Origin: a bacterium
GTDB lineage: Bacteria; Myxococcota; UBA727; JAUIJE01
Direction: 5' to 3'
Assembly (NCBI GenBank): GCA_030431455.1
Contig: JAUIJE010000015.1
Coordinates: 1-64,000, forward strand
DNA length: 64,000 nt
In this document: piece after piece, positions 12,694-54,325 of the stretch
Layout: every line of letters starts with the position of its first letter
Position numbering within the stretch: the stretch's first letter is position 1
Notes under the pieces: model-generated
Seen by the model: only the letters and a program-made list of their open reading frames with translations
Told to the model about the DNA's origin: nothing
Database searches by the model: none
Made by a program: the position numbers and the translations under genes

Positions 12694-12748
12694 GGACGGA
12701 CTTGAGGCCTGATAGCGGCCGGTTGGGACGTTCGAACCACGTTGTCGG

Positions 12749-13027: not shown

Positions 13028-13106
13028 CTGACGTCGATCTGCGAGCCTGTCGGAACCTGCGTGGGACCCAACGAAGCGGGAGCCCCGGGCCAGGAACTGC
13101 TAGGAT

Positions 13107-13487: not shown

Positions 13488-13544
13488 CCCTTGCCCATAA
13501 AGCGCTGAGTACGCAAGAGAGCCGTACACGTCTGAAGACGTCAG

Positions 13545-13823: not shown

Positions 13824-13859
13824 ATGACGAGACTTGGGGCGCACGGGGCCACCTCAGAC

Positions 13860-14852: not shown

Positions 14853-14925
14853 CGGCGCCTACCAGTTTGGGTTCTGTCCTGGGAAGACTACGCTGAGTCG
14901 GCTCCGGGAGTCATTCTCTCGTCAT

Positions 14926-15205
14926 CCAATGCTCCAGAATAGCTGTCCGGAGCCAGGCACCAGAATCGCTACAAGCTGATTGTAGCCCGAAGGGCCTTCA
15001 ACCCCAATCTTGCCCTGGCGGAGGACCCCGAGCCGCCCCCGTGGCCCGCCAGGACGCATTGGTTAGAGCGCCTCTTTAGCTCGAATCGGAAGAGGCGCGT
15101 ACGTGGCGCAGCGTCCTGGCGGGCATCTGCGCACGGTATGTGCTCAGTTCTGTTCAGCTTTTGAGCGATTGAGTAGGCCGGGGCTCAGCAGCTATTCTCT
15201 ATTGG
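14926..15205 (-). repeat. attC-like repeat R17
   Basis: Left arm class A, right arm class I with one inserted T (TTGGTTAGAGC). Confidence 0.92.
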
Positions 15206-15215
15206 AGGACACCGG

Positions 15216-15806
15216 TCACTCGCCACATTCGCACGACCTGGCGTCGCCTGGCGGAAAGCGCTCGGGTGGGTCGTTTGGCGGAAACCCTGCTTGAACGAAC
15301 CTTCGTTCAGCTGTTTCCTCGTCTTGCCCGATGAGGCAGCTCGGGAACACGACCCGTTCAGCAATGAACGGCGGCCTGCCGTCGGCGTCGAGAACTCTTT
15401 GGGGCGTCGCACGGTAGATTCGAAAGAAGCCTCTCTCGGGTAGCAAGAGTGTCTCCGGCAGCATGGCGTGTATGCGCGTCCCGTCGTCAACGTCGGTGAC
15501 CCAACTTTGGTGAACCTGGAGCCAGCCAGAAATGATGATGGCGGTGCCGGAGTTGATGACGCCGCCGGAACCGGGTGGGCACTCACAGGGCTCCAGGGAA
15601 CCATCCGGCAGGCCGCCGTCGGGAATGGGGGAAATCGCCGCGCCCAGCACCTCGTCTCCCTCGCCGAGAACCAGGGCGTCGCCCGCTGCGTGAGCTTGAA
15701 CCAGCACTTGGTGGCAGTCCTCCGGCGGCGGACTAATGGGGCCATCAGCCGCGCCGGACCCGAGTAGGTAGCAGCCGTGCAGTGCGAAGCCCAACAGTCC
15801 TAGCAA
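15216..15806 (-). CDS. Putative lipoprotein (cassette gene)
   Basis: A 196 aa protein with a short signal (MLGLLGFALHGC) whose Cys could be the lipidation site. The mature part has a probable beta-sandwich look (VLGEGDEVLGAAISPIPDGG, SGTAIIISGWLQVHQSW) with scattered cysteines (CECPPG, SCECGE). The last residues end just at the repeat. No recognised family. An alternative start upstream of this Met is possible, because the signal peptide is very short and lacks basic residues. Cassette orientation, spacer ends complementary over 13 bp. Confidence 0.6.
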   Translation of the reverse strand: MLGLLGFALHGCYLLGSGAADGPISPPPEDCHQVLVQAHAAGDALVLGEGDEVLGAAISPIPDGGLPDGSLEPCECPPGSGGVINSGTAIIISGWLQVHQSWVTDVDDGTRIHAMLPETLLLPERGFFRIYRATPQRVLDADGRPPFIAERVVFPSCLIGQDEETAERRFVQAGFPPNDPPERFPPGDARSCECGE

Positions 15807-15843
15807 TAAACGGCCAGTACGAAGCGAAAGAAACAGGTGTCCT

Positions 15844-16118
15844 CCAATGCTCCAGAATAGCTGTCCGGAGCGGGCCCGAACGTAGCTACGAGCTGATTCT
15901 GGCCCGAAGGGCCTTCAACCACAACTCCGGCTTCCGCGTAGGACCCCGAGCGTGTTTCGGCCCGCCAGGTCGCCGTGAAAGAGCGCCACTTTAGCGCGAA
16001 TCGGAAGTGGCGCTTGCTGTCCAGCGGCCTGACGGGCATCCGCGCACAAGATGCGCTGAGTTCATTTGGTTCGTGTACGAGCCGTGAAGCGAGGGGCTCA
16101 GCAGCTATTCTCTATTGG
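15844..16118 (-). repeat. attC-like repeat R18
   Basis: Left arm class C, right arm class II, with one unpaired change in the closing stem (CCTGACGGGC); joined to a family A spacer. Confidence 0.92.
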
Positions 16119-16583
16119 GCGACAGCGAGTCGCCACAGTGCCCCAGGTGGTTGTATTCGCGTTCGCTGACCTGCGTTTGTCGTCGTGGGAGCCGAAATCG
16201 CTCGCGCCGAGGGCGTCTCGTAGGCCTGTCGGGCCACCCGGCTCTCCGGGGCTCCCCCGGCCGCTCCAAACCGGTCTGCCCGACCAAACCCGCTCGTCGG
16301 AGGCCCCTGAGCGCACGGAGGCCGCCAGCGGCTCGCCCGAAAGCGCGGGGCAGGGCTCACCGACCAATCCTCGCCGCAAGCCGCCGTAAGCCCGCAAGAT
16401 GGTCGCTCTGCTGGGGGCTGCCTGCGGACGCCGAAGGCCAGCGGCCAACTCCCCTGAACCAGGAATCCAATCCAAACCCGGCGGTCTTCGCTGACCCGAG
16501 GCCCGAGGCAAACAAAGAAAGGGTGCGGAGACCCCGCTGACCTGAGGCCCACCCCTTCCGATCAAAACCGATGATCCTGTCGC
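16119..16583. repeat. Family A spacer, copy 5
   Basis: 465 bp. On the minus strand a 155-codon frame with a TTG start crosses it, ending GASDFGSHDDKRRSANA; the same end frame is alignable to family B (GANDFGTHDEELDVADP). This is the only hint of past coding. Confidence 0.85.
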
Positions 16584-16862
16584 CCAATGCTCCAGAATAG
16601 CTGTCCGGAGCCAGGGGCCGAATCCGCTACGAGCTGATTGTAGCCCGAAGGGCCTTCAACCCCAATCTTGCTCTGGCGGAGGACCCCGAGCCGCCGATGT
16701 GGCCCGCCAGGACGCATTGGTAGAGCGCCTCTTTAGCGCGAGTCGGAAGAGGCGCGTACGTGGCGCAGCGTCCTGGCGGGCATCTGAGCACGATATGTGC
16801 TCAGTTTTGTTCAGTTTTCTGACGGTGCCGTAGGCCGGGGCTCAGCAGCTATTCTCTATTGG
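16584..16862 (-). repeat. attC-like repeat R19
   Basis: Left arm class A with small changes (CAGGGGCCGAATCC), right arm class I. Confidence 0.92.
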
Positions 16863-17300
16863 GCGACACGATTCGCCACAGTGTCCCAGGTGGGTCGCAT
16901 TCGGGTCTGCGACATCCAGTTCCTCGTCGTGGGTCCCGAAATCGTTCGCGCCGAGGTCCTTCCGTAGGCTTCCCACGCCCTCCCGGCTCTTCGGGGGGCT
17001 GCCCGGCCGCCAAACCCGGCTCGCTCCGACCAAACCTGTCCGGCGAGGCCAGGAAGCGTGGGGCGCTGGGCGGCGGCCTTCCTGAACCAAGAGAGTCCTC
17101 GAGTACCGGCGACCCGCGCTGACAAATGGACCGAGGCGAAGCGACTACCGGCTCCACCGATTGAGAAGAACCCCAACCTTTAGAAGGAAACGGAGTGGCG
17201 TAGATAGAGGATCACAAAGTGAGCCGGAGGAGCGCCCGAAGACAGACCTTCGGGTTTTGAAGACGAATGAACCTTCTCAAACGAAAGAATGTCCTGTCGC
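16863..17300. repeat. Family B spacer, copy 2
   Basis: 438 bp. Nearly identical to copy 1 over its last 130 bases, including the CCCGAAG/CTTCGGG-TTTT hairpin; more divergent in the GC-rich middle. It sits directly between family A copies 5 and 6. Confidence 0.7.
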
Positions 17301-17575
17301 CCAATGCTCCAGAATAGCTGTCCGGAGCCAGGCACCAGATTCGCTACGAGCTGATTGTAGCCCGAAGGGCCTTCAACCCCAATCTTGCCCTGGCGTAGGA
17401 CCCCGAGCGTGTTTTGGCCCGCCAGGTCGCCGTGAAAGAGCGCCACTTTAGCGCGAATCGGAAGTGGCGCTTGCTGTCCAGCGGCCTGGCGGGCATCCGC
17501 GCACAAGATGCGCTGAACTCATTTGGTTTATGTACGAGTCGTGAAGCGAGGGGCTCAGCAGCTATTCTCTATTGG
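17301..17575 (-). repeat. attC-like repeat R20
   Basis: Left arm class A, right arm class II; joined to a family A spacer. Confidence 0.92.
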
Positions 17576-18041
17576 GCGACAGCGAGTCGCCAAGGTGCCC
17601 CAGGTAGTTGTATTCGAGTTCGCTGACCTGCGTTTGTCGTCGTGGGAGCCGAAATCGCTCGCGCCGAGGGCGTCTCGTAGGCTTCTCGGGCCACCCGGCC
17701 GTCCGGGGCTCCCCTGGCCGCTACAAACCGACCAGCCTGACCAAACCCGCTTTCTACGGAGGCCCCTGGGCGCACGGAGGCCGCCAGCGGCTCCCCCGAA
17801 AGTGCGGGGCAGGGCTCACCGACCAATCCTTGGCCGCGAGCCGGCGTGAGCCCGCAAGATGACCGCTCCGCTGGGGCTGCCGGTGGACTCCGAAGGCCAG
17901 CGGCCATTCCCCATGAACGAAGAACCCAATCCAAACCGGCGGTCTGCGCTGACCTGAGGCCCGAGGCAAACGAAAAAGGGGTGCGGAGACCCCGCTGACC
18001 TGAGGCCCGCCCCTTCCGATCTAAACCGATGATCCTGTCGC
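17576..18041. repeat. Family A spacer, copy 6
   Basis: 466 bp. Shares several unusual substitutions with copy 8 (CCTGGCCGCTACAAACCG, TTTCTACGGAGG), suggesting one was copied from the other recently. Confidence 0.85.
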
Positions 18042-18320
18042 CCAATGCTCCAGAATAGCTGTCCGGAGCTAGGCACCGGAATAGCTTCGAGCTGATTGTA
18101 GCCCGAAGGGCCAACAACCCCAATCTTGCCCTGGCGGAGGACCCCGAGCCGCCCCTGTGGCCCGCCAGGACGCACTGGTAGAGCGCCTCTTTAGCTCGAA
18201 TCGGAAGAGGCGCGTACGTGGCGCAGCGTCCTGGCGGGCATCCGCGCACGGTATGTGCTCAGTTTTGTTCGGTTTTTGGATATTCCCGTAGGCCGGGGCT
18301 CAGCAGCTATTCTCTATTGG
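18042..18320 (-). repeat. attC-like repeat R21
   Basis: Left arm class A (with GGGCCAACAACC in place of GGGCCTTCAACC), right arm class I. Confidence 0.92.
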
Positions 18321-18434
18321 GTGACACGGTCCGCATGTTGCCACCTCAAATGGCACCGCCATGCACCCCGGTAGCTTCATGGCCGCTACGGCGCGTGGTA
18401 TGAATCGGAAGGCCAATCGAACCTGGGGAACCGA

Positions 18435-18659
18435 ATGAACGCCATCCTCCACAACTACGGCACGGGATGGGTCGGAGTCTCGCTCGCATTGAAGAGTGAG
18501 GAGATCGACGAACTGTGCCGTCGCCTGCGCCAGCTACAGAACGGTGAGGTCGGCCACTTCCACCTAAGGTGTGACGACCTCGAAGGACAGGAGGGCTTGG
18601 CGGACGTCTCGATAAGTACCCAGGGCCCCGACGAGCTGGACAACATGGTGGTCGAATAG
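18435..18659 (+). CDS. Small Imm32-like protein (cassette gene)
   Basis: A 74 aa acidic protein (MNAILHNYGTGWVGVSLALK...) with GGGGAA upstream of the ATG. The pattern of a beta-strand pair, a helix with SEEIDELCRRLRQLQNG, and a C-terminal DVSISTQGPDELDNMVV resembles Imm32-type immunity proteins, which neutralise polymorphic toxins. No toxin is adjacent, so it could be an orphan immunity gene protecting against neighbours. The family call rests on pattern only. It is co-oriented with, and 89 bases upstream of, an Xre-type regulator. Confidence 0.6.
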   Translation: MNAILHNYGTGWVGVSLALKSEEIDELCRRLRQLQNGEVGHFHLRCDDLEGQEGLADVSISTQGPDELDNMVVE

Positions 18660-18748
18660 CGTCTGGAGCCGCCGGTATCGAACAAGTGGCCAGGACCGAC
18701 GGCCGCCAGCGGACCGTCGAACATGTGGATGCAGTCGAGGGGCAGACA

Positions 18749-19057
18749 GTGCACGCAAGCAAGAGGAAGAGACTTGAAACGACCGGATGGCGAGTGGGAG
18801 ACGGGGCTGACTTCCTGAAGCTCTCCGATGAGGAGGTGTCCTATGTGGAACTCAAGTCCGCCCTCGTCGTGTCGCTTCGATCGAAGCGAGCGGAGTTGGG
18901 GCTGACGCCGAGCGGGGTCGTTGGTCTGATAGAATCCTGCCGACCGCGAGTCGCAACGATGGAGGCCGGCGAGAGCACGGCGTCAGCTGAAATGCTCGTC
19001 GAGAGGCTGCTCGTTCTGGGAGTTACGCGAAAGGAAATCGCGAAGCTCATTGGATAG
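18749..19057 (+). CDS. Xre-type helix-turn-helix protein
   Basis: A 102 aa protein. I chose GTG at 18749 (GAGGGG six bases upstream), giving VHASKRKRLETTGWRVGDG, the usual N-terminus of this antitoxin-like family. The helix-turn-helix spans LVVSLRSKRAELGLTPSGVV and SCRPRVATMEAGE. In related proteins the turn reads LTQ...SQSRVAKME; here LTP and SCRPRVATME are slightly changed. Such proteins act as transcription regulators or as the antitoxin of HigBA-like pairs, but no toxin-like partner lies in the cassette; the partner is the Imm32-like gene. Confidence 0.75.
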   Translation: MHASKRKRLETTGWRVGDGADFLKLSDEEVSYVELKSALVVSLRSKRAELGLTPSGVVGLIESCRPRVATMEAGESTASAEMLVERLLVLGVTRKEIAKLIG

Positions 19058-43292: not shown

Positions 43293-43430
43293 ATGCAAAC
43301 GCAACAACAAGACGTGACCCATCAAACCCCCGCCCAAGGCCCGGCCAAGAAGCCGGTGATCATCGCGCTGCCGGAGACGGACCTCGACGACATCTTCGGC
43401 GCGGGTCGTTGCCCGCCGAAGGTGCGCTGA
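43293..43430 (+). CDS. RiPP precursor peptide 1
   Basis: A 45 aa peptide: a Gln/Thr/Pro-rich start (MQTQQQDVTHQTP), then the conserved block KPVIIALPETDLDDIFGA and a C-terminal GRCPPKVR. The block matches the double-glycine leader consensus cut by C39 proteases (Leu-12, Asp-8, Leu-7, Ile-4, Gly-2, Ala-1). That gives an eight-residue core GRCPPKVR with one Cys, two Pro, one Lys and two Arg. A second gene, 210 bases on, encodes the same leader end and a near-identical core. Downstream genes supply a PqqD-like recognition protein, modifying enzymes and a C39 exporter. Strong ribosome-binding site supports expression. Confidence 0.85.
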   Translation: MQTQQQDVTHQTPAQGPAKKPVIIALPETDLDDIFGAGRCPPKVR

Positions 43431-43558
43431 CGCCGGTCGCGGTTTGACCCTGACCCTCCGGGTTCGCCGCGGCGGTTCCGGAGTGTTCATGGGGGGACGT
43501 GCACAGGCGCCACCCGGTGCGCAGCGTACGTGTTCGTTTCGTTTCTTTCAGAACCTTT

Positions 43559-43578
43559 CCATCGCCGTGCGGCGATGG
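43559..43578 (+). promoter_or_regulatory. Hairpin between precursor genes
   Basis: Perfect inverted repeat CCATCGCC-GTGC-GGCGATGG, not followed by T residues; may stabilise the upstream precursor mRNA rather than terminate it. Confidence 0.5.
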
Positions 43579-43640
43579 AGCACCAAGTTCTGTTCCTGGC
43601 CGTGTTGGCCTCAACCAAGAAAAGAAAAGGGAGATTTGCC

Positions 43641-43781
43641 ATGCAAACCCGTCAACAAGAGAAGCCCCAAACCACCACCGCCACCGTCGAGAACACGGTG
43701 AAGCGGCCGGTGATCATCGCGATGCCCGAGACCGACCTCGATGACATCTTCGGCGCCGGCCGTTGCCCGCCCAAGATGTGA
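43641..43781 (+). CDS. RiPP precursor peptide 2
   Basis: A 46 aa paralogue of precursor 1. The start (MQTRQQEKPQTT) and middle differ, but KRPVIIAMPETDLDDIFGA and the core beginning GRCPPK are kept; the core ends in Met (GRCPPKM), losing the final Val-Arg. Conservation is highest across the leader-core junction, as expected for a protease and recognition site. AAAAGGGAGA precedes the ATG. Thirty-nine codon changes elsewhere versus near-identity here argue for selection on the peptide. Confidence 0.85.
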   Translation: MQTRQQEKPQTTTATVENTVKRPVIIAMPETDLDDIFGAGRCPPKM

Positions 43782-43801
43782 TCGCGGATCGCATCTGACC
43801 A

Positions 43802-43836
43802 GGACCTCTCAGGAGTCGCAGATTTCTGAGGGGTCC
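43802..43836 (+). terminator. Partial terminator between precursors and enzyme genes
   Basis: Stem GGACCTCTCAG/CTGAGGGGTCC (one G-T pair) with a 13-nt loop, followed by AGTTTCCCC, a weak T tail. Likely lets a fraction of transcription pass, keeping precursor mRNA more abundant than enzyme mRNA. Confidence 0.6.
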
Positions 43837-43855
43837 AGTTTCCCCGAGAGCAGCC

Positions 43856-44635
43856 ATGACCCTTTCGTCCCCCGATGCAAGCCGCGATGCCGTGTTCCGA
43901 GAAGCCTGGGCCTACGACCTGGCGTTCGCGTGGGACATCGACGCCGACCTTCAGCTCGCCGCGCGCTTGGCCGAGGTGGCGCCGCCCGCGCGGGTGCTCG
44001 TGCCCGCGTGCGGGACCGGGCGCTATGCCCTGGGCTTGGCCGAGCGCGGCTTTGTCGTCGAGGCGTCCGACCTCGAGCCCAACATGGTGCGGTTCGCGCG
44101 CGCCCACCGCGCCCACCCCGGGGTGGCGTATCGGGTGGGCGACATGCGCGACGACCTCGGGGACGAGACCGTCGATGCGGCGTTCACGTTCTGCAACTCG
44201 TTTCGGTATTTGGCCACCGGCGAGGACGCCTCCCGCCACCTCCAGGCGGTGCGCCGCCGGCTCAAGCCGCGTGGCGTCTACGTGATGGAGTTGGCCTTGC
44301 ATCCGCGCCCGCCCGTGCCCCCGGCGCGCAATGGGTGGCAGGTGCACCATGAGCATTGTCTGGTCACCGCGCTGTGGACGGTGGACCGGGTGACCGCGGA
44401 GCACGCGTTTGAGCGGGCCACGATCTCGGTCCAACCCCACGACCAAAGCGAGCCCGAGCGATTTGTCGCCGAGCAACCCCAGCGGCTCTGGACCGCCTCG
44501 AGCCTGGGCGCGGCGGCCCACGCCGCGGGGTTTGACGACCTCGTCCTCTTCGACCGCACCGGCCAGGTCCGCGCCGGCGACGTCACCGGACGCTACTTCG
44601 CGCGGCTGCGCGCTGGGAGCACCCCATGCAACTGA
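43856..44635 (+). CDS. SAM-dependent methyltransferase 1 (RiPP tailoring)
   Basis: A 259 aa class I methyltransferase. SAM-binding motif I is VLVPACGTGRYALGLAERG, with acidic motif II EASDLEPNMVRFAR. First enzyme gene after the precursors; its end overlaps the radical SAM start by ten bases. A likely target is the peptide core (N-terminus, Lys or Cys side chain), but the substrate cannot be told from sequence. It resembles methyltransferase 2 in overall layout (same Asp-Leu motif, similar C-terminal beta-rich half), so the two may have arisen by duplication. Confidence 0.82.
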   Translation: MTLSSPDASRDAVFREAWAYDLAFAWDIDADLQLAARLAEVAPPARVLVPACGTGRYALGLAERGFVVEASDLEPNMVRFARAHRAHPGVAYRVGDMRDDLGDETVDAAFTFCNSFRYLATGEDASRHLQAVRRRLKPRGVYVMELALHPRPPVPPARNGWQVHHEHCLVTALWTVDRVTAEHAFERATISVQPHDQSEPERFVAEQPQRLWTASSLGAAAHAAGFDDLVLFDRTGQVRAGDVTGRYFARLRAGSTPCN

Positions 44636-45984
44636 ACCCCGCCTTCACCTTTTTGCACAACCGCAAGACCCGCGTCGGGTACGTGATCGCCCACAACGGG
44701 GCCACCGCGCTGGTCAACGACGACGCCATGGACCTGTTGCTGGAACCCGGCCTCGCGTCGGTTCATGAACCCGCGTACCAGCCCTTCTTCGCCCAGGCCC
44801 AAGCCGCGGGGTGGGTGTTGCCCGCCCCCAGCGACGCGGCGGCCACGGTTCGAATCGTGGACAGCGAGCCCCACCTCACGCGCATCCAGGTGGAGCTGAA
44901 CCTGGTGTGCAACCTGGAGTGCGCCCATTGTTATTGCAGCTCGTCGCCCCGGGCGGCCGCGGGCCGAGAGACGTCGTTCTTTGCGTCTCTCCTGGACCAG
45001 GCCGCGGACATGGGCGTGATCCACGTGGACTTCACCGGGGGCGAACCCCTCATCCGCAAGGACCTCGAGGACTTGATCGGGCAAAGCCGCGGTCGCGGCA
45101 TGGTCCCCACCATTCACACCAACGGCACCCTCGTGACCGAGGCCCGGGCCCGCGCGTTGCGCGACGCGGGCTTGGCCGAGGCGCTGGTCTCCGTCGACGC
45201 CGCGACCCCCGCGCTGCACGACGCGTTCCGCGGCAAGGCCGGGGCCTTTGTCCGCACCATGGCCGGCATCCGCGCGTTTCAGACCGTGGGCGTCCCCGTC
45301 GGGGTCAACGTGTGCCTCAACCGCCAGAACGCCGGCGAGGTACACGACATTGTGCGGCTGTTCCGCGACGAGCTGCAGGTGCCGTTTCACTTCGACCGGG
45401 TGATCCCCGCGGGGCGCACCACCGAAAGCGAAGACCCCATCGCCTTGTCCAATGCCGATTACTTCGCCCTGATGCGCGAGGTGTTCGGGCAGGGCTCGGC
45501 CTTGGCCACCAAAAAGGCGTGTGACGCGGGCAACCGCCACGCCCGGGCCGCGCGCATCGACCCGTTCTGCGGGGTGGGGGCCAACTACGCCTTCATCAAA
45601 CACAACGGGACGTTGGCGCTGTGCCCCACAATGACCGAGGCCGAAAGCACCGCGTTCGCCCACGCCGACCTCGTCGACCAGGGCCTGCGGGAGGCGTGGG
45701 AACAACACCCCACGTTTGTGCGCACCCGCCACATGCAGTGCGAAAATGTGTCGGTGTGCCCCTCGGGCGCCGACTGCGGGGGAGGTTGCCGATCCAACGC
45801 CTACCTCTTGCACGGGCGGCTCGACTCCCCGGACGAGATGTATTGCAACCTCAACAAGAACGAGGGGGACGAGTACGTCCCCATGCTCGCCCGCTACGAG
45901 GACATGCGGGCCCGGGGCGAGCTTCCGCCCCGCCCCGCGCCTTTGCCGCGTGCCGCGCCGCGGGCGTTGACGGTGTTGGCGTGA
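44626..45984 (+). CDS. SPASM-domain radical SAM peptide maturase
   Basis: A 452 aa enzyme. The radical SAM cluster ligands are in CNLECAHCYC near residue 94 (CX3CX2C), with FTGGEPLIRKDL following. The C-terminal SPASM domain carries two further Fe-S clusters: CGVGANY ... LALC, then CENVSVCPSGADCGGGC and MYC. This layout is found in maturases that make thioether, C-C or other crosslinks on RiPP precursors. With a single Cys in the core, a Cys-to-carbon thioether is one possibility; modification at Arg, Pro or Lys is another. Translationally coupled to the arginase-like gene (GTGA overlap). Confidence 0.88.
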   Translation: MQLNPAFTFLHNRKTRVGYVIAHNGATALVNDDAMDLLLEPGLASVHEPAYQPFFAQAQAAGWVLPAPSDAAATVRIVDSEPHLTRIQVELNLVCNLECAHCYCSSSPRAAAGRETSFFASLLDQAADMGVIHVDFTGGEPLIRKDLEDLIGQSRGRGMVPTIHTNGTLVTEARARALRDAGLAEALVSVDAATPALHDAFRGKAGAFVRTMAGIRAFQTVGVPVGVNVCLNRQNAGEVHDIVRLFRDELQVPFHFDRVIPAGRTTESEDPIALSNADYFALMREVFGQGSALATKKACDAGNRHARAARIDPFCGVGANYAFIKHNGTLALCPTMTEAESTAFAHADLVDQGLREAWEQHPTFVRTRHMQCENVSVCPSGADCGGGCRSNAYLLHGRLDSPDEMYCNLNKNEGDEYVPMLARYEDMRARGELPPRPAPLPRAAPRALTVLA

Positions 45985-46742
45985 GCGCGCCGTCGCCCAT
46001 CCTGGTGGCGGGCTACGACGGCACCTCGCGGGTGCCGGGCGCAGCCGCCGGCGCGGTCCTGCTCTACCGCCGCCTGCGCACCTTGTGGCCCCGGGCGGCG
46101 GAGACCGCGCCGCTGGTGTTGTCGGGGCCGAGCAAAAGTTCGCAGGTGTGGGGCCACCGGCTGTACCGGGCGGCGCGGGACCACGCCCCCCGGTTGATGC
46201 TCGGCGGCGATCATTTCGTGACTTTCCCACGCATCGAAGCGTTGCGGCAGAGCCACCCCGATGTGCGGTTGGTGGTCCTCGATGCCCATCACGATGCCTA
46301 CGACGCGCCCACGTTGTCGCATTACTCGGTGCTCGGCTTCGTCGCCCAAGACCTGCGCATCCCGACGATGGTGGTGGGGGTGCGCAAGGACCTCGACCAG
46401 GCCGGCGACGGGGTGCAGACCATCCGCGCCGCCGCGGTGCGCGACGACCTGGCCGGGACCCAGGCCGCGCTCGACGCGTTCTGTGGTGACGCCCCGGTGT
46501 ACCTGAGCATCGACGTCGACGTGCTCGAGCCCGATGTGTTCGCGCACGTGTCCGACCCGGTGGCGAACGGGCTCGACATGGACGCGGTGTGTGCGTTGGT
46601 GCGGGCCCGCTTGCGGACCGGCCACGTGGTGGCCGCCGACGTGGTCGAGTTCAACGCGATGCGCGAGGGCGTGACCCAAGCCGCGGCCCAGGTCGCGGTG
46701 TTGGACCCCTTGCTGGAGGAGGTGGCGGCATGGCTCGGGTGA
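45981..46742 (+). CDS. Arginase-family enzyme, putative peptide arginase
   Basis: A 253 aa ureohydrolase-fold protein with the two-manganese site residues in place: GGDHFVTFPR, LDAHHDAYDA (DAHxD) and LSIDVDVLEPD. Free arginases and agmatinases share these. Inside a RiPP operon the best parallel is the peptide arginase of landornamide-type clusters (OspR), which converts Arg in a precursor to ornithine. Both cores here contain one Arg at position 2. GTG start overlaps the preceding stop (GTGA). It is shorter than most agmatinases. Function on the peptide is inference; free guanidino substrates remain possible. Confidence 0.8.
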   Translation: MSAPSPILVAGYDGTSRVPGAAAGAVLLYRRLRTLWPRAAETAPLVLSGPSKSSQVWGHRLYRAARDHAPRLMLGGDHFVTFPRIEALRQSHPDVRLVVLDAHHDAYDAPTLSHYSVLGFVAQDLRIPTMVVGVRKDLDQAGDGVQTIRAAAVRDDLAGTQAALDAFCGDAPVYLSIDVDVLEPDVFAHVSDPVANGLDMDAVCALVRARLRTGHVVAADVVEFNAMREGVTQAAAQVAVLDPLLEEVAAWLG

Positions 46743-46939
46743 GGCGAACCAAGGGGGTGTGCGTGGATCGGCAATACCGCGGCGCGGTGTTGTTGCGCGG
46801 CATAGAGCTGCTGCACGTCGACGAGCGGTGTGCGCGGGTGTTGGACGACATCCACGAGGGGTGGTCGACGGTGGACGCCCATGACCCCGACGGCCTCGCC
46901 GCCCTCGCCGCCGCCGGCGTGGTCGAGGTGGAATCATGA
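46730..46939 (+). CDS. PqqD-like RiPP recognition protein
   Basis: A 69 aa protein: VDRQYRGAVLLRGIELLHVD, ERCARVLDDIHEGWSTVD, then a C-terminal helix and strand (GLAALAAAGVVEV). Length, the beta-turn-beta plus three-helix layout and position match PqqD-type recognition elements, which hold leader peptides for radical SAM enzymes. Overlaps both neighbours (13 bases upstream, ATGA downstream), fixing its place in the operon. Sequence similarity to PqqD is weak, so the call depends on context. Confidence 0.65.
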   Translation: MARVRRTKGVCVDRQYRGAVLLRGIELLHVDERCARVLDDIHEGWSTVDAHDPDGLAALAAAGVVEVES

Positions 46940-47742
46940 TGCACGCCCTGCCCCACGATCGCATCTACGACGAGGCCCCGCTGTACGACCTCGCGTTCAG
47001 CTACCGGGACATCCCCGCCGAGGTCGACTTCATCGAGGCGGCGTACGCCGAGGCCACGGGATCGGCCCGGCCCCGGCGCATGGTGGAGCTCGCCAGCGGA
47101 CCGGGCCGCCACGCCCAAGAGTTCGCGCGCCGGGGGGTGTCGGCGCACGCGGTGGACCTGGCCCCGGCGATGGTGGCCTTCGGCCAACAATCCGCGCAGA
47201 CCGCCGGCGTCCACGTGCAATATCATTGCGGTGATATGCGGGACATCCGCCTGCAGCCCCCGGCCGACCTGGTGGTGTGCATGCTGTGTTCGGCGGGCTA
47301 CCTCGTCGAGGAGGACGACCTCGCCCGTCATCTGCGCACCGTGCGCGACCTCCTGCGCCCGGGCGGCTTGTACCTGGCCGAGCTCGCGCACCCCGGCGAC
47401 ATCCCCGCCGACGCCGACGGGGGCCGCACCCAGAACGAGTGGACCATGGACGGCCCCGACGGGGTGCTCGACGTGTCCTGGGCCGAGGCCCCGGACGCCG
47501 AAAGCCCCGGGGAGCGCACCGTCATCGCCCAGGCCCGGTTGACCTGGACCCCGCGCGACGGGGCGCCCCGGGTGGTGGAGGCGAACTCGGCCCAGCGGGT
47601 GTACGAAGAGCGCGAGTGGCGCCACCAGGTCGCGGCCTGTGATGGCCTTTCATTTGTGAACAGCTGGGGGGCCTTCGACCCCCACGTGGGGGTCAACGCC
47701 CCCGAGGCGTGGCGCATGATCGTCGCGGTGAGGCGGTCATGA
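46936..47742 (+). CDS. SAM-dependent methyltransferase 2 (RiPP tailoring)
   Basis: A 268 aa class I methyltransferase with MVELASGPGRHAQEFARRG (motif I), HAVDLAPAMVAFGQQ (motif II) and VVCMLCSAGYLVEEDDLARH. The C-terminal third is beta-rich, as in peptide- or small-molecule N/O-methyltransferases. Two distinct methyltransferases in one small-core operon suggest two methylated positions or two substrates. Its ATG overlaps the PqqD-like stop, and its stop overlaps the HlyD start. Confidence 0.82.
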   Translation: MMHALPHDRIYDEAPLYDLAFSYRDIPAEVDFIEAAYAEATGSARPRRMVELASGPGRHAQEFARRGVSAHAVDLAPAMVAFGQQSAQTAGVHVQYHCGDMRDIRLQPPADLVVCMLCSAGYLVEEDDLARHLRTVRDLLRPGGLYLAELAHPGDIPADADGGRTQNEWTMDGPDGVLDVSWAEAPDAESPGERTVIAQARLTWTPRDGAPRVVEANSAQRVYEEREWRHQVAACDGLSFVNSWGAFDPHVGVNAPEAWRMIVAVRRS

Positions 47743-48671
47743 GCGACCCGCGGTTTGCGAAGTTTCGCCCCGAGGCGGTGGCGTACATGCTCGAGGGGCG
47801 CGAGGCCCATGGCCCGGCGTTTGTGCCCGAGCCGCCGGGGCTGCGCACCGGGTACCAGGCGTGCCTGGTGCTGGCCTTCGGCATCGCACTGGTCGCGCTG
47901 GTGGGCAGGGTCGGCGACGACGCGGTGGGGCAAGGGGTGGTGCACCAGCCGAGCCGCCGGTTGGTGGCCGCCCGCACCGACGGCCACGTCGAGCAAGTCC
48001 ATGTGCGGGTGGGCCAAGGGGTCAAGGCCGGCGACGTGATGGTGAGCTTGGACCGGCGCGAACAAATGGCACTGGTTCGACGCCACCAACGCGAGCAGGA
48101 GGCGCTGCTGGCCAAAATCCTCGTGGTGCCGTCCGATGACGAGGCCCGGGCGGACCTGGCGCGGGTCAACGCCGACCTCGAGGCGGCGAAGCTCCGCCTC
48201 GACGCGCGGACCCTGCGCTCGCCCGTCGATGGCAGGGTCACCGACCTCGCGGTGCACGTGGGCCAGCCCGTGACCCAAGGCCAGCGGTTGGCCTGGGTCG
48301 ACCCCGGCACCGCCGGGCACATCTTGGTCGCGGCGGTTCCCGGCGATTACCGCCCCCACCTGCGCGCGGGGCAGCCGGTGCGGGTGGAGTTCGCGGGGTT
48401 TCCCGACGCGGTCCAAAGCCTGGTCACCGCCGAGGTGGGCGGGCTGGTGATGGCGCCGGAGGAGGCCGCGCGCATCCTCGGCCGGGGCACCGCGGCGGTG
48501 CAGTTGCATGGGCCGCAGACCCAGGTGGTGGTCAAGTTGCCGCCCCACTTCGAAAGCCGTGGGCAACAAATTGAGCTCTACGACGGCATGCAAGCCAAGG
48601 TCATGGTCCAGGCCCGGCGCGAGCGCGTGATCGAGGCGCTCATTCCCTGGACGAAGAAAGCAGGGCTGTGA
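47739..48671 (+). CDS. HlyD-family membrane fusion protein 1
   Basis: A 310 aa periplasmic adaptor with one N-terminal transmembrane helix (ACLVLAFGIALVALVG, residues about 44-59). A lipoyl/hairpin half-site (LVAARTDGHVEQVHVRVGQ, VMVSLDRREQMALVRR) is followed by a short coiled coil, then the second half-site SPVDGRVTDLAVHVGQPV. Such proteins link an inner-membrane exporter to the outer membrane. Short hairpin compared with classic HlyD. Directly precedes the C39 ABC exporter gene (one base apart). Confidence 0.85.
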   Translation: MSDPRFAKFRPEAVAYMLEGREAHGPAFVPEPPGLRTGYQACLVLAFGIALVALVGRVGDDAVGQGVVHQPSRRLVAARTDGHVEQVHVRVGQGVKAGDVMVSLDRREQMALVRRHQREQEALLAKILVVPSDDEARADLARVNADLEAAKLRLDARTLRSPVDGRVTDLAVHVGQPVTQGQRLAWVDPGTAGHILVAAVPGDYRPHLRAGQPVRVEFAGFPDAVQSLVTAEVGGLVMAPEEAARILGRGTAAVQLHGPQTQVVVKLPPHFESRGQQIELYDGMQAKVMVQARRERVIEALIPWTKKAGL

Positions 48672-48672
48672 C

Positions 48673-50853
48673 ATGAGTGCCCAGACGACGCTTCGTGATG
48701 TGTTCGAGCGGATCCGCCCGGTCCCCTACGTCGAGCAGGTCAACCAAGCCGAGTGCGGCGTGGCCAGCTTGGCCATGGTGCTCGCCCACTTCGGACGCAA
48801 GACGCGCCTCGACGAGATCCGGGAGCAGATGAGCTTCGGGGTCTCGGGGTTGGCCGCCCGCACCATTCTCGAGGCCGCGCGCCGGTTCGGGCTTCAGTCC
48901 CGGGGCGTGCGCATTGACCTCGAGCACCTCGACGCGCTGCCCCGCGCGTCGATCCTGCACTGGGAGTTCAACCACTACGTGGTGTTTGATCGGGTCAACC
49001 GGGACGGCTCGGTGGTGATCAACGATCCGCGGGCCGGCCGGGTGGTGCTCCCCCCCGACGAGGTGAGCAAACGCTTCACCGGGATCGCGCTCACCTTCGA
49101 GCCCTCCGCCACCCTCGAGCGGCGGCGCTTGCCCAACGCCACGTGGCACCTGCTGCGCCAGGTGCTCACCGGCGAGCCCCTGGTGCGGCGGGTGTTGCTG
49201 CTCTCGTTGGTGATCGAAGCGGTCTCGTTGACCCTGCCCCTGGTCACCGGACTGGTGGTGGACCGGTTGTTGCCCCACAACGATCACGACCTGTTTCGGG
49301 TGATGACGGTGGGCGCGGTGGCGTTGGCGTCGTACTACTGCGCGCTGGTGTACGTGCGCGAACAGCTCATGGTGGTCCTGCGGGTACGATTCGATGCTTC
49401 GTTGACCATGGGATTGTTTGAGCACCTGATGTCGTTGCCGTTTTCGTACTTTCAGGCCCGGGACACAGCCCACCTCGCGCACCGGTTTCACTCCACCGCG
49501 TGGATTCGCGACGCGATCTCCGCGGGGGTGACCGCGGGGTTGCTCGACGCGGTGTTCGCGGTCGTCGCGTTGGTGGCGTTGTTTGGGGTCCAGCCGTTCA
49601 TGGGCTTGGTGGCCCTCGGGGCCGGAGCGGTGCAGGTCGGCATCCTCGTCGGCATCCGCGGGCGCCTGATGGCGACGTGGCGCCAAGACCTCGAGCTGAT
49701 GATGAAGTCCCAAGGGGTACTGATGGAGTTCATCGGCGGCATCGAGACGATCAAACTCGCGGGGGCCGAGGGACGCGCGTTCAGCGATTGGGCCAACCTC
49801 TACACCGCCACCGCCAACAACCTCGCCCGGCGCGGGGGCCTCGAAGCCATGCTCGCCGCGACCAAGCTTGCCCTCGGGTTCCTCGGGCCCATCGCCGTGC
49901 TCCTCGCGGGGGGCTGGGTGGTGATGCACAACGAGGTGTCGGTGGGCACGATGCTCGCGGCCAGCGCGATGGGGGTCGCGTTCTTGAATCCCCTCGGCCA
50001 CGCCGCGATGGAGCTGATGCAACTCGGGGCGCTCAAGATCCACGCCGAGCGCCTCGACGACGTGTTCAGCCAACCCCGGGAACGCAAGACCGGCGAGACC
50101 AAGGCCCCGGTCGATCTCCAGGGGGGCGTTTGTCTCTCCCAGGTGTCGTACCGCTATTCACCCGACCTCCCCGAGGTGCTGCAGGACGTGTCACTCGACG
50201 TGGCCCCGGGATCGTTCGTGGCCATCGTGGGACCCACCGGAAGCGGCAAGACCACCCTGGGCCGGGTGCTCGCGGGCCTGGTCGAACCCTCGGCGGGCAC
50301 GGTGCGCTACGACGGCCACCGCGCCGAAGACCTCGACCTCGCGTCGTTGCGCCACCAAGTCGCGGCGGTGACGCAACACACCCGGCTGTTCGCCCGGACG
50401 GTGCGCGACAATGTCACGCTGCTCGACGACTCCGTCCCCCTCGAGCAGGTCGAGACCGCGCTGCGGCACGCGCTGTTGTGGGACGAAGTCCAGCGGCTGC
50501 CCACCGGGGTGCACACCGAGATCGCCGAGGACGGCCGGAGCCTGAGCGGGGGCCAGCGTCAACGGCTGGCCGTGGCCCGCGCGCTGCTCCGCCGCCCCAA
50601 GGTCTTGCTCCTCGACGAGGCCACATCGGCGCTGGACACCGACACCGAGCGGCGGCTGCAAAAGAACCTCGACGACTACGCGTGCACCAAGGTGGTGATC
50701 GCCCACCGGCTGTCCACGGTCAAACACGCCGATCGCATCGTCGTGCTCGACGCCGGGCGCATCGTGGCCGAAGGCACCCACGCCGAGCTGGTGGCCGCCG
50801 GTGGCATCTACGCCGACCTCGTCGAAGCCCAGCTCAGCGCGGAGGCGTCATGA
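48673..50853 (+). CDS. C39-peptidase ABC exporter (bacteriocin/RiPP type)
   Basis: A 726 aa exporter. Residues about 15-140 form a C39 cysteine protease with catalytic Cys in NQAECGVASLAMVLAHFG, His in HWEFNHYVVFD and Asp in INDPRAG; this domain cuts double-glycine-type leaders such as those of the two precursors. Six transmembrane helices follow (about 165-450), then the ATPase: Walker A GPTGSGKTT, signature LSGGQRQR, Walker B KVLLLDEATSALD. Overlaps the second HlyD gene by four bases. The complete machinery for leader removal and export is therefore encoded here. Confidence 0.93.
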   Translation: MSAQTTLRDVFERIRPVPYVEQVNQAECGVASLAMVLAHFGRKTRLDEIREQMSFGVSGLAARTILEAARRFGLQSRGVRIDLEHLDALPRASILHWEFNHYVVFDRVNRDGSVVINDPRAGRVVLPPDEVSKRFTGIALTFEPSATLERRRLPNATWHLLRQVLTGEPLVRRVLLLSLVIEAVSLTLPLVTGLVVDRLLPHNDHDLFRVMTVGAVALASYYCALVYVREQLMVVLRVRFDASLTMGLFEHLMSLPFSYFQARDTAHLAHRFHSTAWIRDAISAGVTAGLLDAVFAVVALVALFGVQPFMGLVALGAGAVQVGILVGIRGRLMATWRQDLELMMKSQGVLMEFIGGIETIKLAGAEGRAFSDWANLYTATANNLARRGGLEAMLAATKLALGFLGPIAVLLAGGWVVMHNEVSVGTMLAASAMGVAFLNPLGHAAMELMQLGALKIHAERLDDVFSQPRERKTGETKAPVDLQGGVCLSQVSYRYSPDLPEVLQDVSLDVAPGSFVAIVGPTGSGKTTLGRVLAGLVEPSAGTVRYDGHRAEDLDLASLRHQVAAVTQHTRLFARTVRDNVTLLDDSVPLEQVETALRHALLWDEVQRLPTGVHTEIAEDGRSLSGGQRQRLAVARALLRRPKVLLLDEATSALDTDTERRLQKNLDDYACTKVVIAHRLSTVKHADRIVVLDAGRIVAEGTHAELVAAGGIYADLVEAQLSAEAS

Positions 50854-51782
50854 CACCCCGGGTGATCCTGCTCTGTTCGGTGACCCTGCTCGTCATTGCC
50901 GGCGTCGTCGAGGTGGTGGAACAGACCCGCCCGGCCCCGACGTACGCCCCTCCCGAGGTGGTCGCGTCGCCGGCGCCGGTGCCCCTCGCGCCCCGCTTCG
51001 TGGGCGTGCTCACCGGGGGGGCGCGGGACATCCCCAACCACGAGGCGGGCCGGGTGCTGTCGGTGCTGGTGCGGCCGGGCGACGTGGTCGAGGCCAACGC
51101 CCCGTTGATCCAGCTCGACGACCAAGACATCCGCTTGGCCCAAAAGGCAGCCCTGGCCGAGGTGGACGCGGCCGACGCGGACGTGCGGTTACGCCAGGCG
51201 CGTCTGGCCGAGGCCCGGGATCTGTACAACCAGGCGGTGGCGCTCAAGGCACACACGCCCGCGGCGCGGCGCCGGTCGGCGGCGCGGGCGGTGCAGGCCG
51301 CGCGGTCCGCGCTGTCGTTGGCCAAGAGCACGCTCGCGCAACGAAAGGCGGCGGCCGAGCTGTTCGCGCTGCGCCTCGAGCAGCGGGTGGTGCGCACCGA
51401 CCGGGCCGGCACGGTGATGGCGGTGTTGGTGTCCGAGGGCGCGCACATCGATCAAGGCACATTGGTGGTGCGCATGGCCTACGAAGCAGCCCACACCGTC
51501 AAGGTCGCGGTGCCCGGCGATCAGGTGGGGACGCTCACCGTGGGGCAGAGCCTGCGGCTCACCCAGGGCGACGTGCTCGCGCGCGCGGTGATCGAGAATG
51601 TGCCCCCCGGGGTCGACCCCTCGACCGGGCACCAGGTGGTGGAGGCCAAAGTTACTGGACCCCAAGCGGGGCTGGTCCCCGGGGTGCCGCTGCAGGTCGA
51701 AGCCGAGACCCCGGTGGAGGTGACCTCGACGACCGCGGTCCGTTGTTGCGACGCCGAGGGCGGCGTGCCCTTCGGCGGCTGA
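50850..51782 (+). CDS. HlyD-family membrane fusion protein 2
   Basis: A 310 aa adaptor with a signal/anchor (MTPRVILLCSVTLLVIAGVV), first half-site FVGVLTGGARDIPNHEAGRV, a predicted long coiled coil (residues about 90-170, rich in Ala, Arg and Leu: ADADVRLRQARLAEARDLYN) and second half-site RTDRAGTVMAVLVSEGAHID. Ends in a Cys pair (RCCDAEGG). Different from HlyD 1, so the exporter may use two adaptors with distinct roles. ATG overlaps the exporter stop; last clearly coupled gene of the operon. Confidence 0.85.
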   Translation: MTPRVILLCSVTLLVIAGVVEVVEQTRPAPTYAPPEVVASPAPVPLAPRFVGVLTGGARDIPNHEAGRVLSVLVRPGDVVEANAPLIQLDDQDIRLAQKAALAEVDAADADVRLRQARLAEARDLYNQAVALKAHTPAARRRSAARAVQAARSALSLAKSTLAQRKAAAELFALRLEQRVVRTDRAGTVMAVLVSEGAHIDQGTLVVRMAYEAAHTVKVAVPGDQVGTLTVGQSLRLTQGDVLARAVIENVPPGVDPSTGHQVVEAKVTGPQAGLVPGVPLQVEAETPVEVTSTTAVRCCDAEGGVPFGG

Positions 51783-51791: not shown

Positions 51792-52691
51792 TTAGGCCGC
51801 GGCCGCGGTGGCGGGGGGACACAAGGCCCGGGCCCGGGCCACGTCGAGCAGCGGGATCGGGGTCTGGTTGCGGTACAGGCCGGGGACCACCGCGGCCAAG
51901 AACGCGGCCCGCTGCGCGAAGGTGACCCGGCCCTCGTCGAGCACGATGGCGGGTTCACGCGCACCTTCGATGCCGTCGCGTTCGAGCTCAAACGCAAAGC
52001 TCATGCGCGTGTCAGGGGTGAAGTTCTTGCCGCCCCAATGAACGATCGCTTGGTTGAAACACACCAGCGAGCCCGCGGGCACGGGCAATGCCCGGATGTC
52101 GCGCAGGTCGCCGATGGCCAGCGTGGCCAGCTCGTCGGGGAAGTGCGGATCGGCCGAGGCGGGCAGCACCGACAGGCAGGCACGCTCCGCGGGCACGTCG
52201 GTGAGCGACACCCAGGTGGTGAGCATCTTGGGCAGACCCTGGTCGTCGACCGGGTCCGTCCAACGATCGCGGTGGGGGCCAAAGCCCGCGTCCCCGCCGG
52301 GCACCACGTTGACGAAGGGGAGCGGCACCGCCCGGCACCCCGGGCCCAGCAAACGCCGCAGCAGGGGGCGAAGCTGGCCCAGCAGACGCCAAGGCTCGTC
52401 GTAGAGGAGGGCGAACACCTCATGCACGCCCTGGCCCCGGAGCTGATCGATGCCGGTGCGCAGCGCGCGGGCGGGGCCGTCGTCCCACAGGCGGGGGAGC
52501 GCGAACACGCCGTCGGCGCACATGTCATCTTGGGCGCCATCGAGCACCGCCGTCGACAGCCGGTGGTGGAGCCCGTCGTCGAACGACACCTCGGGAGACA
52601 GCGTCAGCGCCGGGGCCAGCCCGCGCCAATGGGCCGCGGTCTGCACCGCTTCGGGGTCAGAGAGCGCGGGAAGATCGGGAATGTCACGCAT
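51792..52691 (-). CDS. 2OG/Fe(II)-dependent oxygenase (phytanoyl-CoA dioxygenase-like)
   Basis: A 299 aa protein with the 2-His-1-carboxylate site: GFGPHRDRWTD supplies His-x-Asp, and NQAIVHWGGKNFTPDTRMSF supplies the distal His and the 2-oxoglutarate-binding Arg. Such enzymes hydroxylate peptides or small molecules. It is convergent with the RiPP operon, starting from a Met (MRDIPDLPALSDPEA) 200 bases from the next minus-strand gene. It could hydroxylate Pro, Lys or ornithine in the core, or belong to unrelated metabolism; the gap of nine bases to the operon is suggestive. Confidence 0.8.
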   Translation of the reverse strand: MRDIPDLPALSDPEAVQTAAHWRGLAPALTLSPEVSFDDGLHHRLSTAVLDGAQDDMCADGVFALPRLWDDGPARALRTGIDQLRGQGVHEVFALLYDEPWRLLGQLRPLLRRLLGPGCRAVPLPFVNVVPGGDAGFGPHRDRWTDPVDDQGLPKMLTTWVSLTDVPAERACLSVLPASADPHFPDELATLAIGDLRDIRALPVPAGSLVCFNQAIVHWGGKNFTPDTRMSFAFELERDGIEGAREPAIVLDEGRVTFAQRAAFLAAVVPGLYRNQTPIPLLDVARARALCPPATAAAA

Positions 52692-52756
52692 GGTGTGACC
52701 GTACCCGTCGTCGAGCCAAGGCCAACGGAAAGAACCCAAAAGGTCCTGAATCTGGT

Positions 52757-54325
52757 TCAGGCCGGCGCGGGCCAGGCCCGGTACGGCACCAACGGCTCGC
52801 TCTTGCCCTTGAGCTGCAGCGCGTCGAGGGCGGTCGACCTCAGCGGCGTGCGGCCGGCGTCGACGAGCTGGGCGCAGGTGGGGTTGAGCCACACTTCCCC
52901 CGCGGGGGCCGAGCCGCACAGCCGTGCAGCGACATTGACGGTGTCGCCGATCACGGTGTACTCCATTTGCCGCGACGCATCCCCGACGTTGCCCGCGACC
53001 ATGTTGCCGGTGGCGATGCCCACCCCGACCTCGAGCTCACCGATCTCGGGGAACGCCCCCTTGGCGTTCATCTCGGTGATGGCCTTTTGCATCTCGATGG
53101 CACAACGCACCGCCCGGCTGGCGTGGTCGACCTGGGCCACCGGCGCGTTCCACACCACCACCACCGCGTCCCCGATGAACTTGTCAAGATACCCGTCGTG
53201 CTCGTCGATGACCTCGGTGACACGCGCGTAATAGCGGTTGAGCAGCCCGAGCACCGCGTCGGGGGACAGCTTTTCGCTCATCGAGGTGAAGCCGCGAATG
53301 TCCGCGAACAGCACCGAGGCGTGGACTTGGCGCGCGGTGATCACCGCCTGGCCGTGTTGGGCCCGGATCTGTTCGAGCACCGACTTGCTCACGTAGGTGC
53401 CGAAGGCGCGCTCCATGCGCTCGGCCATGCGCAGCGACGACACCATGTCATTGAAGTGGTCCACCAGCTCTTCGATGTCCCGGCTCTTGCCGGCTTCGAC
53501 CTTCACGTGGCGGTCGCCTTGGGCCACGCGGTCGAAGGCCTCGCCCAAGGGCTCGAGGTCTTCGACCACCGACGCGGCGAGCTTGTCGATGGCGGCCAGC
53601 GCCGCGGGCAGGGCGAGCAGGAACGACACGATGTGCGCGCCGAGGGAAATGCGCAGGAGGTTGCCGTCGAGAAAGTCCCGCGCGAGCTTGAGCTCCTCGA
53701 GCTCGAAGAAGTCTTGGAACGGGTGGATGTCCGAGTGGGACCACCAATCGAGCTGGGCCCGGAGCAGCTCGATCAGGCTGGTCGAGAAGAACGCGGTGAG
53801 CAGCGCAATGGTGCCGAGCCCGAGCACGACGAAGAGCACCCGGTCGCGCAACAGCGGGCGGAACAGCCCGATGAAGCGGTCCATGGTCAGCACCACCATC
53901 GAGCCCGCGCACGCGGCCGAGAACCACAGGCCCCCGAAGAACACCTGCACCGGCTGGGCGCTGTCGACCTGCACCTGGTGCAACAAGAAGATGATCACCG
54001 AACCGAGGGCCACGGTGAGCACGGGCACGAACAGCGCGGCGAGGCCGGTGATGGCCAACCGGCGCCAGTACACCCAATGGGCAAAGCGGTAAAAGAACCG
54101 CTGCTCGGCGTGGCGGGCGAGGGCGAACCAGCCGAACAGCGCCGCGAGCAACAACAACCCGGTGGGGATGCCGAACAGCGAGACCCCGGTCCAGGCCAGG
54201 AGCACGTCGATGGTGAGCGAAGCCCCCGCGACGTACAGCGGCCAGCGCGGCCATTCCAGCCCGGTGCGCGGGGCGGTGCGGATGACCTCGAGCTCGGGCG
54301 TGGTCAGAAGACGCGGCCGGTTCAT
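52757..54325 (-). CDS. Membrane adenylate/guanylate cyclase with HAMP domain
   Basis: A 522 aa class III nucleotide cyclase. Six hydrophobic segments in residues about 27-250 form an integral membrane input region, then a HAMP-like linker (GEAFDRVAQGDRHVKVEAG), then the catalytic domain from about residue 310 (HASVLFADIRGFTSMSEKL with the metal-binding Asp residues, and YLDKFIGDAVVVVWNAP). EYTVIGDTVNVAARL is the conserved transition-state region. It probably makes cAMP or cGMP in response to membrane signals. Separate from the RiPP operon by orientation. Confidence 0.9.
   Translation of the reverse strand: MNRPRLLTTPELEVIRTAPRTGLEWPRWPLYVAGASLTIDVLLAWTGVSLFGIPTGLLLLAALFGWFALARHAEQRFFYRFAHWVYWRRLAITGLAALFVPVLTVALGSVIIFLLHQVQVDSAQPVQVFFGGLWFSAACAGSMVVLTMDRFIGLFRPLLRDRVLFVVLGLGTIALLTAFFSTSLIELLRAQLDWWSHSDIHPFQDFFELEELKLARDFLDGNLLRISLGAHIVSFLLALPAALAAIDKLAASVVEDLEPLGEAFDRVAQGDRHVKVEAGKSRDIEELVDHFNDMVSSLRMAERMERAFGTYVSKSVLEQIRAQHGQAVITARQVHASVLFADIRGFTSMSEKLSPDAVLGLLNRYYARVTEVIDEHDGYLDKFIGDAVVVVWNAPVAQVDHASRAVRCAIEMQKAITEMNAKGAFPEIGELEVGVGIATGNMVAGNVGDASRQMEYTVIGDTVNVAARLCGSAPAGEVWLNPTCAQLVDAGRTPLRSTALDALQLKGKSEPLVPYRAWPAPA

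What the first reader, a model, noticed from the sequence alone, without database searches (positions are those of the whole stretch)
43293..46742. Arginase-fold enzyme inside the RiPP operon points to ornithine in the core
Metal ligands GGDH, DAHHD and DVDVLEPD are intact. Both cores carry an Arg next to the Cys. Peptide arginases that make ornithine in RiPPs are known from landornamide-type clusters. Here one would act with a SPASM radical SAM enzyme and two methyltransferases, a combination I do not recognise.
Basis: partly seen in the sequence, partly recalled or inferred. Interest (0 to 1): 0.85.

Follow-up and report, generated by a model that had tools for sequence, protein, structure and literature searches.

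The report
Enteropeptin-like peptide pathway, Gram-negative variant
A bacterium, probably a Gram-negative myxobacterial relative, carries a small gene cluster that looks built to make a tiny ring-containing peptide with ornithine, by the same chemical logic as the enteropeptins of enterococci and streptococci, which suggests that this chemistry reaches beyond Gram-positive bacteria.

Summary
In detail: two near-identical precursor genes, a SPASM radical SAM gene and an arginase-family gene with all metal-ligand motifs form one operon with two methyltransferases, a small protein, two HlyD-like proteins and a C39-peptidase ABC exporter. [quoted passage not shown] The cores match: enteropeptin A is MKGRCPPS, D is LKGRCPPSV; here they are GRCPPKVR and GRCPPKM once the exporter peptidase cuts after a double-glycine-type GA site. 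So I expect ornithine only after thiomorpholine formation; the proposed precursor-plus-arginase test could fail falsely. Differences: paired class I methyltransferases instead of the reported Fe-S-dependent enzyme, C39 export, two precursors, a probably Gram-negative host. No orthologous cluster was found in 195 genomes of the phylum. New variant of a known kind.

The parts
43293..43430 (+). Precursor peptide 1: leader MQTQQQDVTHQTPAQGPAKKPVIIALPETDLDDIFGA, predicted core GRCPPKVR
   Evidence: Sequence; AAAGGAG upstream; double-Gly-type site with L-12, L-7, I-4, G-2, A-1; core GRCPP identical to enteropeptins A and D
43641..43781 (+). Precursor peptide 2: leader MQTRQQEKPQTTTATVENTVKRPVIIAMPETDLDDIFGA, predicted core GRCPPKM
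   Evidence: Sequence; 68% identical to precursor 1; 6 synonymous against 1 non-synonymous change in the conserved half
43856..44635 (+). Class I SAM methyltransferase MT1 (candidate ornithine or N-terminal N-methyltransferase)
   Evidence: PF08241/PF13649; PDB hits include CalS10, aminosugar N,N-dimethyltransferases and cypemycin N-terminal methyltransferase; weak daptide MTase hit, below cut-off
44626..45984 (+). Radical SAM/SPASM maturase, proposed to form Cys-S to Arg-Calpha thioether (six-membered thiomorpholine)
   Evidence: PF04055 E 6.9e-21, PF13186 SPASM E 1.8e-4; CNLECAHC and SPASM cysteines; NCBIfam scores below equivalog cut-offs, so an uncharacterised subfamily
45981..46742 (+). 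Arginase-fold ureohydrolase (pfam00491), proposed peptidyl-Arg to Orn, KgrD-like in role
   Evidence: PF00491; metal ligands intact; AlphaFold model mean pLDDT 71.8, pTM 0.79; best fold match E. coli agmatinase, TM 0.70
46730..46939 (+). Small 69-aa protein, candidate stand-alone RiPP recognition element
   Evidence: Overlaps the arginase and MT2 genes; PqqD-like only by eye: no Pfam/NCBIfam/PHROG match; model too poor to judge (pLDDT 49)
46936..47742 (+). Class I SAM methyltransferase MT2, paralogue of MT1
   Evidence: PF13649 E 6.7e-17; 35% identical to MT1 over 210 aa, E 1e-22; PDB hits include N-methyltransferases
47739..48671 (+). HlyD-family membrane fusion protein 1
   Evidence: PF13437/PF13533
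48673..50853 (+). ABC exporter with N-terminal C39 peptidase; proposed to cut the leader and export
   Evidence: PF03412 E 2.7e-31, PF00664, PF00005; candidate catalytic residues in QAECG, HY and NDP present; best NCBIfam hit NHLM_micro_ABC1, below cut-off
50850..51782 (+). HlyD-family membrane fusion protein 2
   Evidence: PF13437

Best explanation
The operon makes two very small sactipeptide-type products by enteropeptin logic. (1) The SPASM radical SAM enzyme abstracts the alpha hydrogen of the Arg before Cys and joins Cys sulfur to that carbon, giving a thiomorpholine ring (-2.016 Da). (2) The pfam00491 arginase hydrolyses that modified Arg to Orn and urea (-42.022 Da). (3) One or both methyltransferases N-methylate, most simply the ornithine side chain (+14.016 Da each). 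(4) The C39 peptidase of the ABC exporter cuts after GA and exports GRCPPKVR and GRCPPKM in modified form (predicted [M+H]+ 882.498 and 758.369 with one methyl). Shown: the genes, motifs, operon layout, double-Gly-type site and the GRCPP identity with enteropeptins A and D. Inferred: every reaction, their order, and the product masses.
For: Enzyme set SPASM rSAM + pfam00491 arginase + methyltransferases in one operon with the precursors. Core GRCPP is identical to enteropeptin D LKGRCPPSV (PMC12445099) and to A, assembled as Met-Lys-Gly-Orn(Me)-Cys-Pro-Pro-Ser (PMC12973295). Given an RC pair, chance G..PP flanks have probability about 2e-4 at this residue composition. [quoted passage not shown] Leader positions -12, -7, -4, -2, -1 fit a C39 double-glycine site and give 7-8 residue cores, like the 7-9 residue enteropeptins. 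Few amino-acid but several synonymous changes between the two precursors. Arginase metal ligands intact, fold nearest agmatinase. The summed shift -30.022 Da of ring, ornithine and one methyl equals the shift reported for enteropeptin D.
Against: No Kgr protein sequence could be fetched, so homology of the enzymes was not tested. Lys before Gly in the KGR motif is Ala here and would be cut off with the leader. The reported enteropeptin methyltransferase is Fe-S dependent; here there are two class I enzymes. The arginase is a long branch and groups with no RiPP arginase with support. The loop between DAHHD and the active-site His is shorter than in agmatinases and poorly modelled.
Confidence: 0.72

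Rival explanations
1. Ornithine is formed, but the radical SAM enzyme installs a different link (for example Cys S to beta or gamma carbon, or to another residue), and the GRCPP likeness is convergence.
For: The SPASM enzyme falls below all NCBIfam equivalog cut-offs, so its chemistry is not fixed by sequence. It could not be compared with KgrC. Its best PDB match is cytosylglucuronate decarboxylase, with SkfB next.
Against: The only Cys lies directly after Arg in both precursors, and the identical GRCPP core is known to take the S-Calpha ring.
Confidence: 0.13
2. OspR/landornamide-like route: the arginase acts on linear Arg independently of the radical SAM enzyme.
For: OspR-type arginases tolerate many linear precursors (PMC12703449).
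Against: [quoted passage not shown] The only pfam00491 peptide arginase described in the papers read needs the thiomorpholine first.
Confidence: 0.08
3. The arginase-fold enzyme is a metabolic agmatinase or arginase that happens to lie in a RiPP operon.
For: Best sequence and fold matches are agmatinases at 25-30% identity.
Against: The gene overlaps its neighbours in the middle of the operon. It has lost the GTGTP loop (HVSDP instead) and has a shortened N-terminal region compared with agmatinases. The genome has a separate, stronger PF00491 gene elsewhere, G000:C4.
Confidence: 0.05
4. The arginase is a dead paralogue or acts as a binding partner only.
For: Catalytically degenerate arginase-fold proteins occur in another RiPP-like locus of this phylum (L031).
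Against: All six metal-ligand positions and the Glu of DVVEFN are intact here.
Confidence: 0.02

Closest known systems
Enteropeptins A-D (KGR subfamily of RaS-RiPPs; Enterococcus cecorum, Streptococcus thermophilus)
   Same: GRCPP core with Arg before Cys; SPASM radical SAM enzyme; pfam00491 arginase; methyltransferase; 7-9 residue products
   Different: Here: probably Gram-negative host, two precursors, double-Gly leader with C39 exporter and HlyD proteins, two paralogous class I methyltransferases rather than the reported Fe-S-dependent one, Ala-Gly rather than Lys-Gly before Arg; enzyme homology untested
Landornamide / OspR-type peptide arginases (pfam12640)
   Same: Ureohydrolase superfamily enzyme in a RiPP operon, Arg to Orn
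   Different: Different Pfam family and motifs; proteusin or other precursors; acts on linear peptide
Classical sactipeptides (SkfB, subtilosin, thuricin maturases)
   Same: SPASM radical SAM, Cys to alpha-carbon thioether (inferred here)
   Different: Macrocyclic thioethers, often several, and no arginase or ornithine (and general knowledge)
Bacterial agmatinase (E. coli SpeB)
   Same: Nearest sequence and fold match of the arginase
   Different: 253 aa, 27-28% identity to agmatinases over the alignment, GTGTP loop lost, different N-terminal region

Membership tests
Enteropeptin (KGR) RaS-RiPP | Core with Arg immediately before Cys in the GRCPP context | tested here: met
   Both precursors GAGRCPPK; enteropeptins A and D from papers
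Enteropeptin (KGR) RaS-RiPP | KGR motif with Lys two before Arg | tested here: not met
   AGR instead of KGR
Enteropeptin (KGR) RaS-RiPP | SPASM radical SAM maturase in the operon | tested here: met
   44626-45984, PF04055 + PF13186
Enteropeptin (KGR) RaS-RiPP | pfam00491 arginase in the operon | tested here: met
   45981-46742, PF00491 99.6 bits
Enteropeptin (KGR) RaS-RiPP | Fe-S-dependent N-methyltransferase | tested here: not met
   Two class I SAM methyltransferases instead; no Fe-S domain found in them
Enteropeptin (KGR) RaS-RiPP | Sequence homology of the enzymes to Kgr proteins | not testable with these tools
   No Lactobacillales genome could be reached by the search tools; genome-contig scan spent
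Enteropeptin (KGR) RaS-RiPP | Thiomorpholine and N-methylornithine in the product | not testable with these tools
   Needs mass spectrometry and NMR
OspR-type peptide arginase (pfam12640) | pfam12640 match and motifs EEH(N/H)EAF, LDIDLDYFSC | tested here: not met
   Only PF00491 found; motifs absent from sequence; motifs defined
Sactipeptide | Cys S to alpha-carbon thioether made by a SPASM radical SAM enzyme | tested here: inconclusive
   Enzyme class present; reaction not shown
Double-glycine leader / C39 exporter peptide | Hydrophobic residues at -12, -7, -4 and GG/GA at -2/-1, with a C39-ABC exporter nearby | tested here: met
   L/M-12, L-7, I-4, G-2, A-1 in both precursors; C39 domain E 2.7e-31
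Stand-alone RRE (PqqD-like) | Match to PqqD or the RRE winged-helix fold | tested here: inconclusive
   No Pfam match up to E 10; model pLDDT 49

The most novel reading that the evidence does not exclude
An independent (convergent) Gram-negative system that arrived at the same GRCPP thiomorpholine-ornithine product as the enteropeptins with unrelated enzymes, and adds a second N-methylation (dimethylated ornithine side chain, or an N-methylated N-terminus) by its paralogous methyltransferase pair.
Probability: 0.15. Interest if true: 0.8.

Novelty: new variant of a known kind. Interest (0 to 1): 0.56.

Why it matters
Enteropeptins are documented only from Enterococcus and Streptococcus in the papers available here, and their role is unclear. 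The same GRCPP core in a probably Gram-negative host with its own exporter would show that the thiomorpholine-ornithine motif is used far outside the Bacillota, give a second arginase and two alternative N-methyltransferases for the same chemistry, and allow a comparison that shows which core residues matter (GRCPP kept, Lys dropped).

Tried and rejected
Arginase scan of about 85,000 genome representatives: only 4 agmatinase-like hits at 30-33% identity. Arginase and radical SAM searches of 195 phylum genomes: no orthologue at E 1e-14 and 1e-40. Precursor profile over the same genomes: only weak hits (E 0.006-0.05), none with a DDIF...GRC precursor by inspection. The weak third hit in the own genome lies in an OmpA-like gene. 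Viral and plasmid searches for the precursor found nothing relevant. Plasmid radical SAM hits (best bit score: Paenibacillus polymyxa pSb31l) have no annotated arginase in the neighbourhood of that best hit. Resemblance of LDDIF to the DD(I/V)LF orphan RiPP family was considered and dropped: there the motif is C-terminal and the arginase is pfam12640. Arginase tree: window row is a long branch with no supported partner, so no claim of shared descent with other RiPP arginases. No Rfam search was made.
Full report
What was claimed and whether it is there. All of that is present. The ORF at 45981-46742 encodes 253 residues and matches Pfam PF00491 at 99.6 bits against a cut-off of 22. GGDH, DAHHD and DVDVLEPD are at residues 75, 101 and 178, with LSHYS at 112 and DVVEFN at 220. 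The precursor genes at 43293-43430 and 43641-43781 encode MQTQQQDVTHQTPAQGPAKKPVIIALPETDLDDIFGAGRCPPKVR and MQTRQQEKPQTTTATVENTVKRPVIIAMPETDLDDIFGAGRCPPKM. Over the shared half from PVIIA to RCPP the two copies differ at six synonymous codons and one non-synonymous (L to M) codon, which points to selection on the peptide itself.

The operon is larger than the given range. Reading downstream: MT1 43856-44635, radical SAM/SPASM 44626-45984, arginase 45981-46742, a 69-residue protein 46730-46939, MT2 46936-47742, HlyD 47739-48671, C39-peptidase ABC exporter 48673-50853, HlyD 50850-51782. From MT1 on, neighbouring genes overlap by a few bases or abut, which is the layout of one transcription unit. 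The radical SAM enzyme has CNLECAHC and a SPASM cysteine set. MT1 and MT2 are paralogues, 35% identical over 210 residues; solved relatives include aminosugar N,N-dimethyltransferases and, for MT1, the cypemycin N-terminal methyltransferase. That suggests N-methylation but does not fix the target.

The combination is known. [quoted passage not shown] KgrD needs the thiomorpholine. PMC10028609 says the same of its restricted substrate. PMC12445099 gives enteropeptin D as LKGRCPPSV with a mass shift of -30.0218 and says that the link in enteropeptins joins Cys 5 sulfur to the alpha carbon of Arg 4. PMC12973295 describes enteropeptin A as an octapeptide whose assembly corresponds to Met-Lys-Gly-Orn(Me)-Cys-Pro-Pro-Ser. 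The window cores share GRCPP exactly. With the residue frequencies of this region, the G..PP flanks around a given RC pair have a chance of about 2e-4. Together with the matching enzyme set this is hard to ascribe to chance, although chance is not formally excluded.

Where the core begins. Counting back from GA|GRCPP, positions -12, -7, -4, -2 and -1 are L/M, L, I, G and A, the pattern of double-glycine leaders (general knowledge of the C39 family). The exporter in the operon carries a C39 peptidase domain at E 2.7e-31 with QAECG, HY and NDP in place. The predicted cores, GRCPPKVR and GRCPPKM, have 8 and 7 residues, as the enteropeptins have 7 to 9. Predicted [M+H]+ for ring plus ornithine plus one methyl are 882.498 and 758.369.

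What the arginase is and is not. It is pfam00491, and the motifs that define OspR-type pfam12640 peptide arginases are absent, so landornamide is not the right model. Its nearest solved relatives by sequence and by fold are agmatinases (AlphaFold model pLDDT 71.8, pTM 0.79). It differs from agmatinases by a shorter, different N-terminal region, HVSDP in place of the GTGTP loop, and a shortened loop after DAHHD. The L. brevis arginase that lies beside a YcaO gene shows a similar loss (AVSYP) and a similar EFN motif (DFVEFN), but the tree does not join the two with support. The genome has a second, stronger PF00491 gene elsewhere, which makes a housekeeping role for this one less likely.

Distribution. 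No second copy was found in 195 genomes of the phylum with the arginase (E 1e-14), the radical SAM enzyme (E 1e-40) or the precursors, and the scan of genome representatives with arginase octapeptides gave only four agmatinase-like proteins. That scan needs an exact shared octapeptide and would miss a diverged orthologue. The host is the only member of its family in the data; its phylum is probably Myxococcota, which I infer from the genome sizes of its relatives, not from a tool.

What is shown and what is inferred. Shown: gene content, motifs, conservation of the precursor, a fitting C39 site, and GRCPP identity with published enteropeptins. Inferred: all reactions, their order, the methylation target, the small protein as an RRE (no family match, poor model), and the host's phylum. 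Not tested: homology of the enzymes with Kgr proteins, since no Lactobacillales genome could be reached.

Verdict. I file it as working like an enteropeptin pathway; membership is not claimed, because the KGR lysine and the Fe-S methyltransferase are missing and homology is untested. It is a new variant of a known kind.

Noticed in passing
L031 (G057:C1:4928500-4948000), 7852-18869 (-): Another RiPP-like locus in the same phylum: candidate precursor ending LELAGRCNGRCDAQVERSVE, a radical SAM protein, two intact arginases each next to a catalytically degenerate arginase with an extra N-terminal domain, and two cupin_8/JmjC-like proteins.
   Followed up: partly
L022 (Levilactobacillus brevis plasmid pBRV479), 5656-9832: YcaO gene followed by a pfam00491 arginase with an extra N-terminal domain and an MFS transporter: a possible third kind of arginase-bearing RiPP locus.
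   Followed up: partly
L028 (G040:C142), 1344-3909 (-): Arginase of 425 aa with an extra N-terminal domain, near a cupin/JmjC-like protein (by eye); in the tree it groups with L029, L035 and the degenerate arginases of L031, which also bear extra N-terminal domains.
   Followed up: partly
window 51792-52919 (-): PhyH-family oxygenase gene convergent with the end of the operon; probably not part of it, but a possible tailoring enzyme.
   Followed up: no
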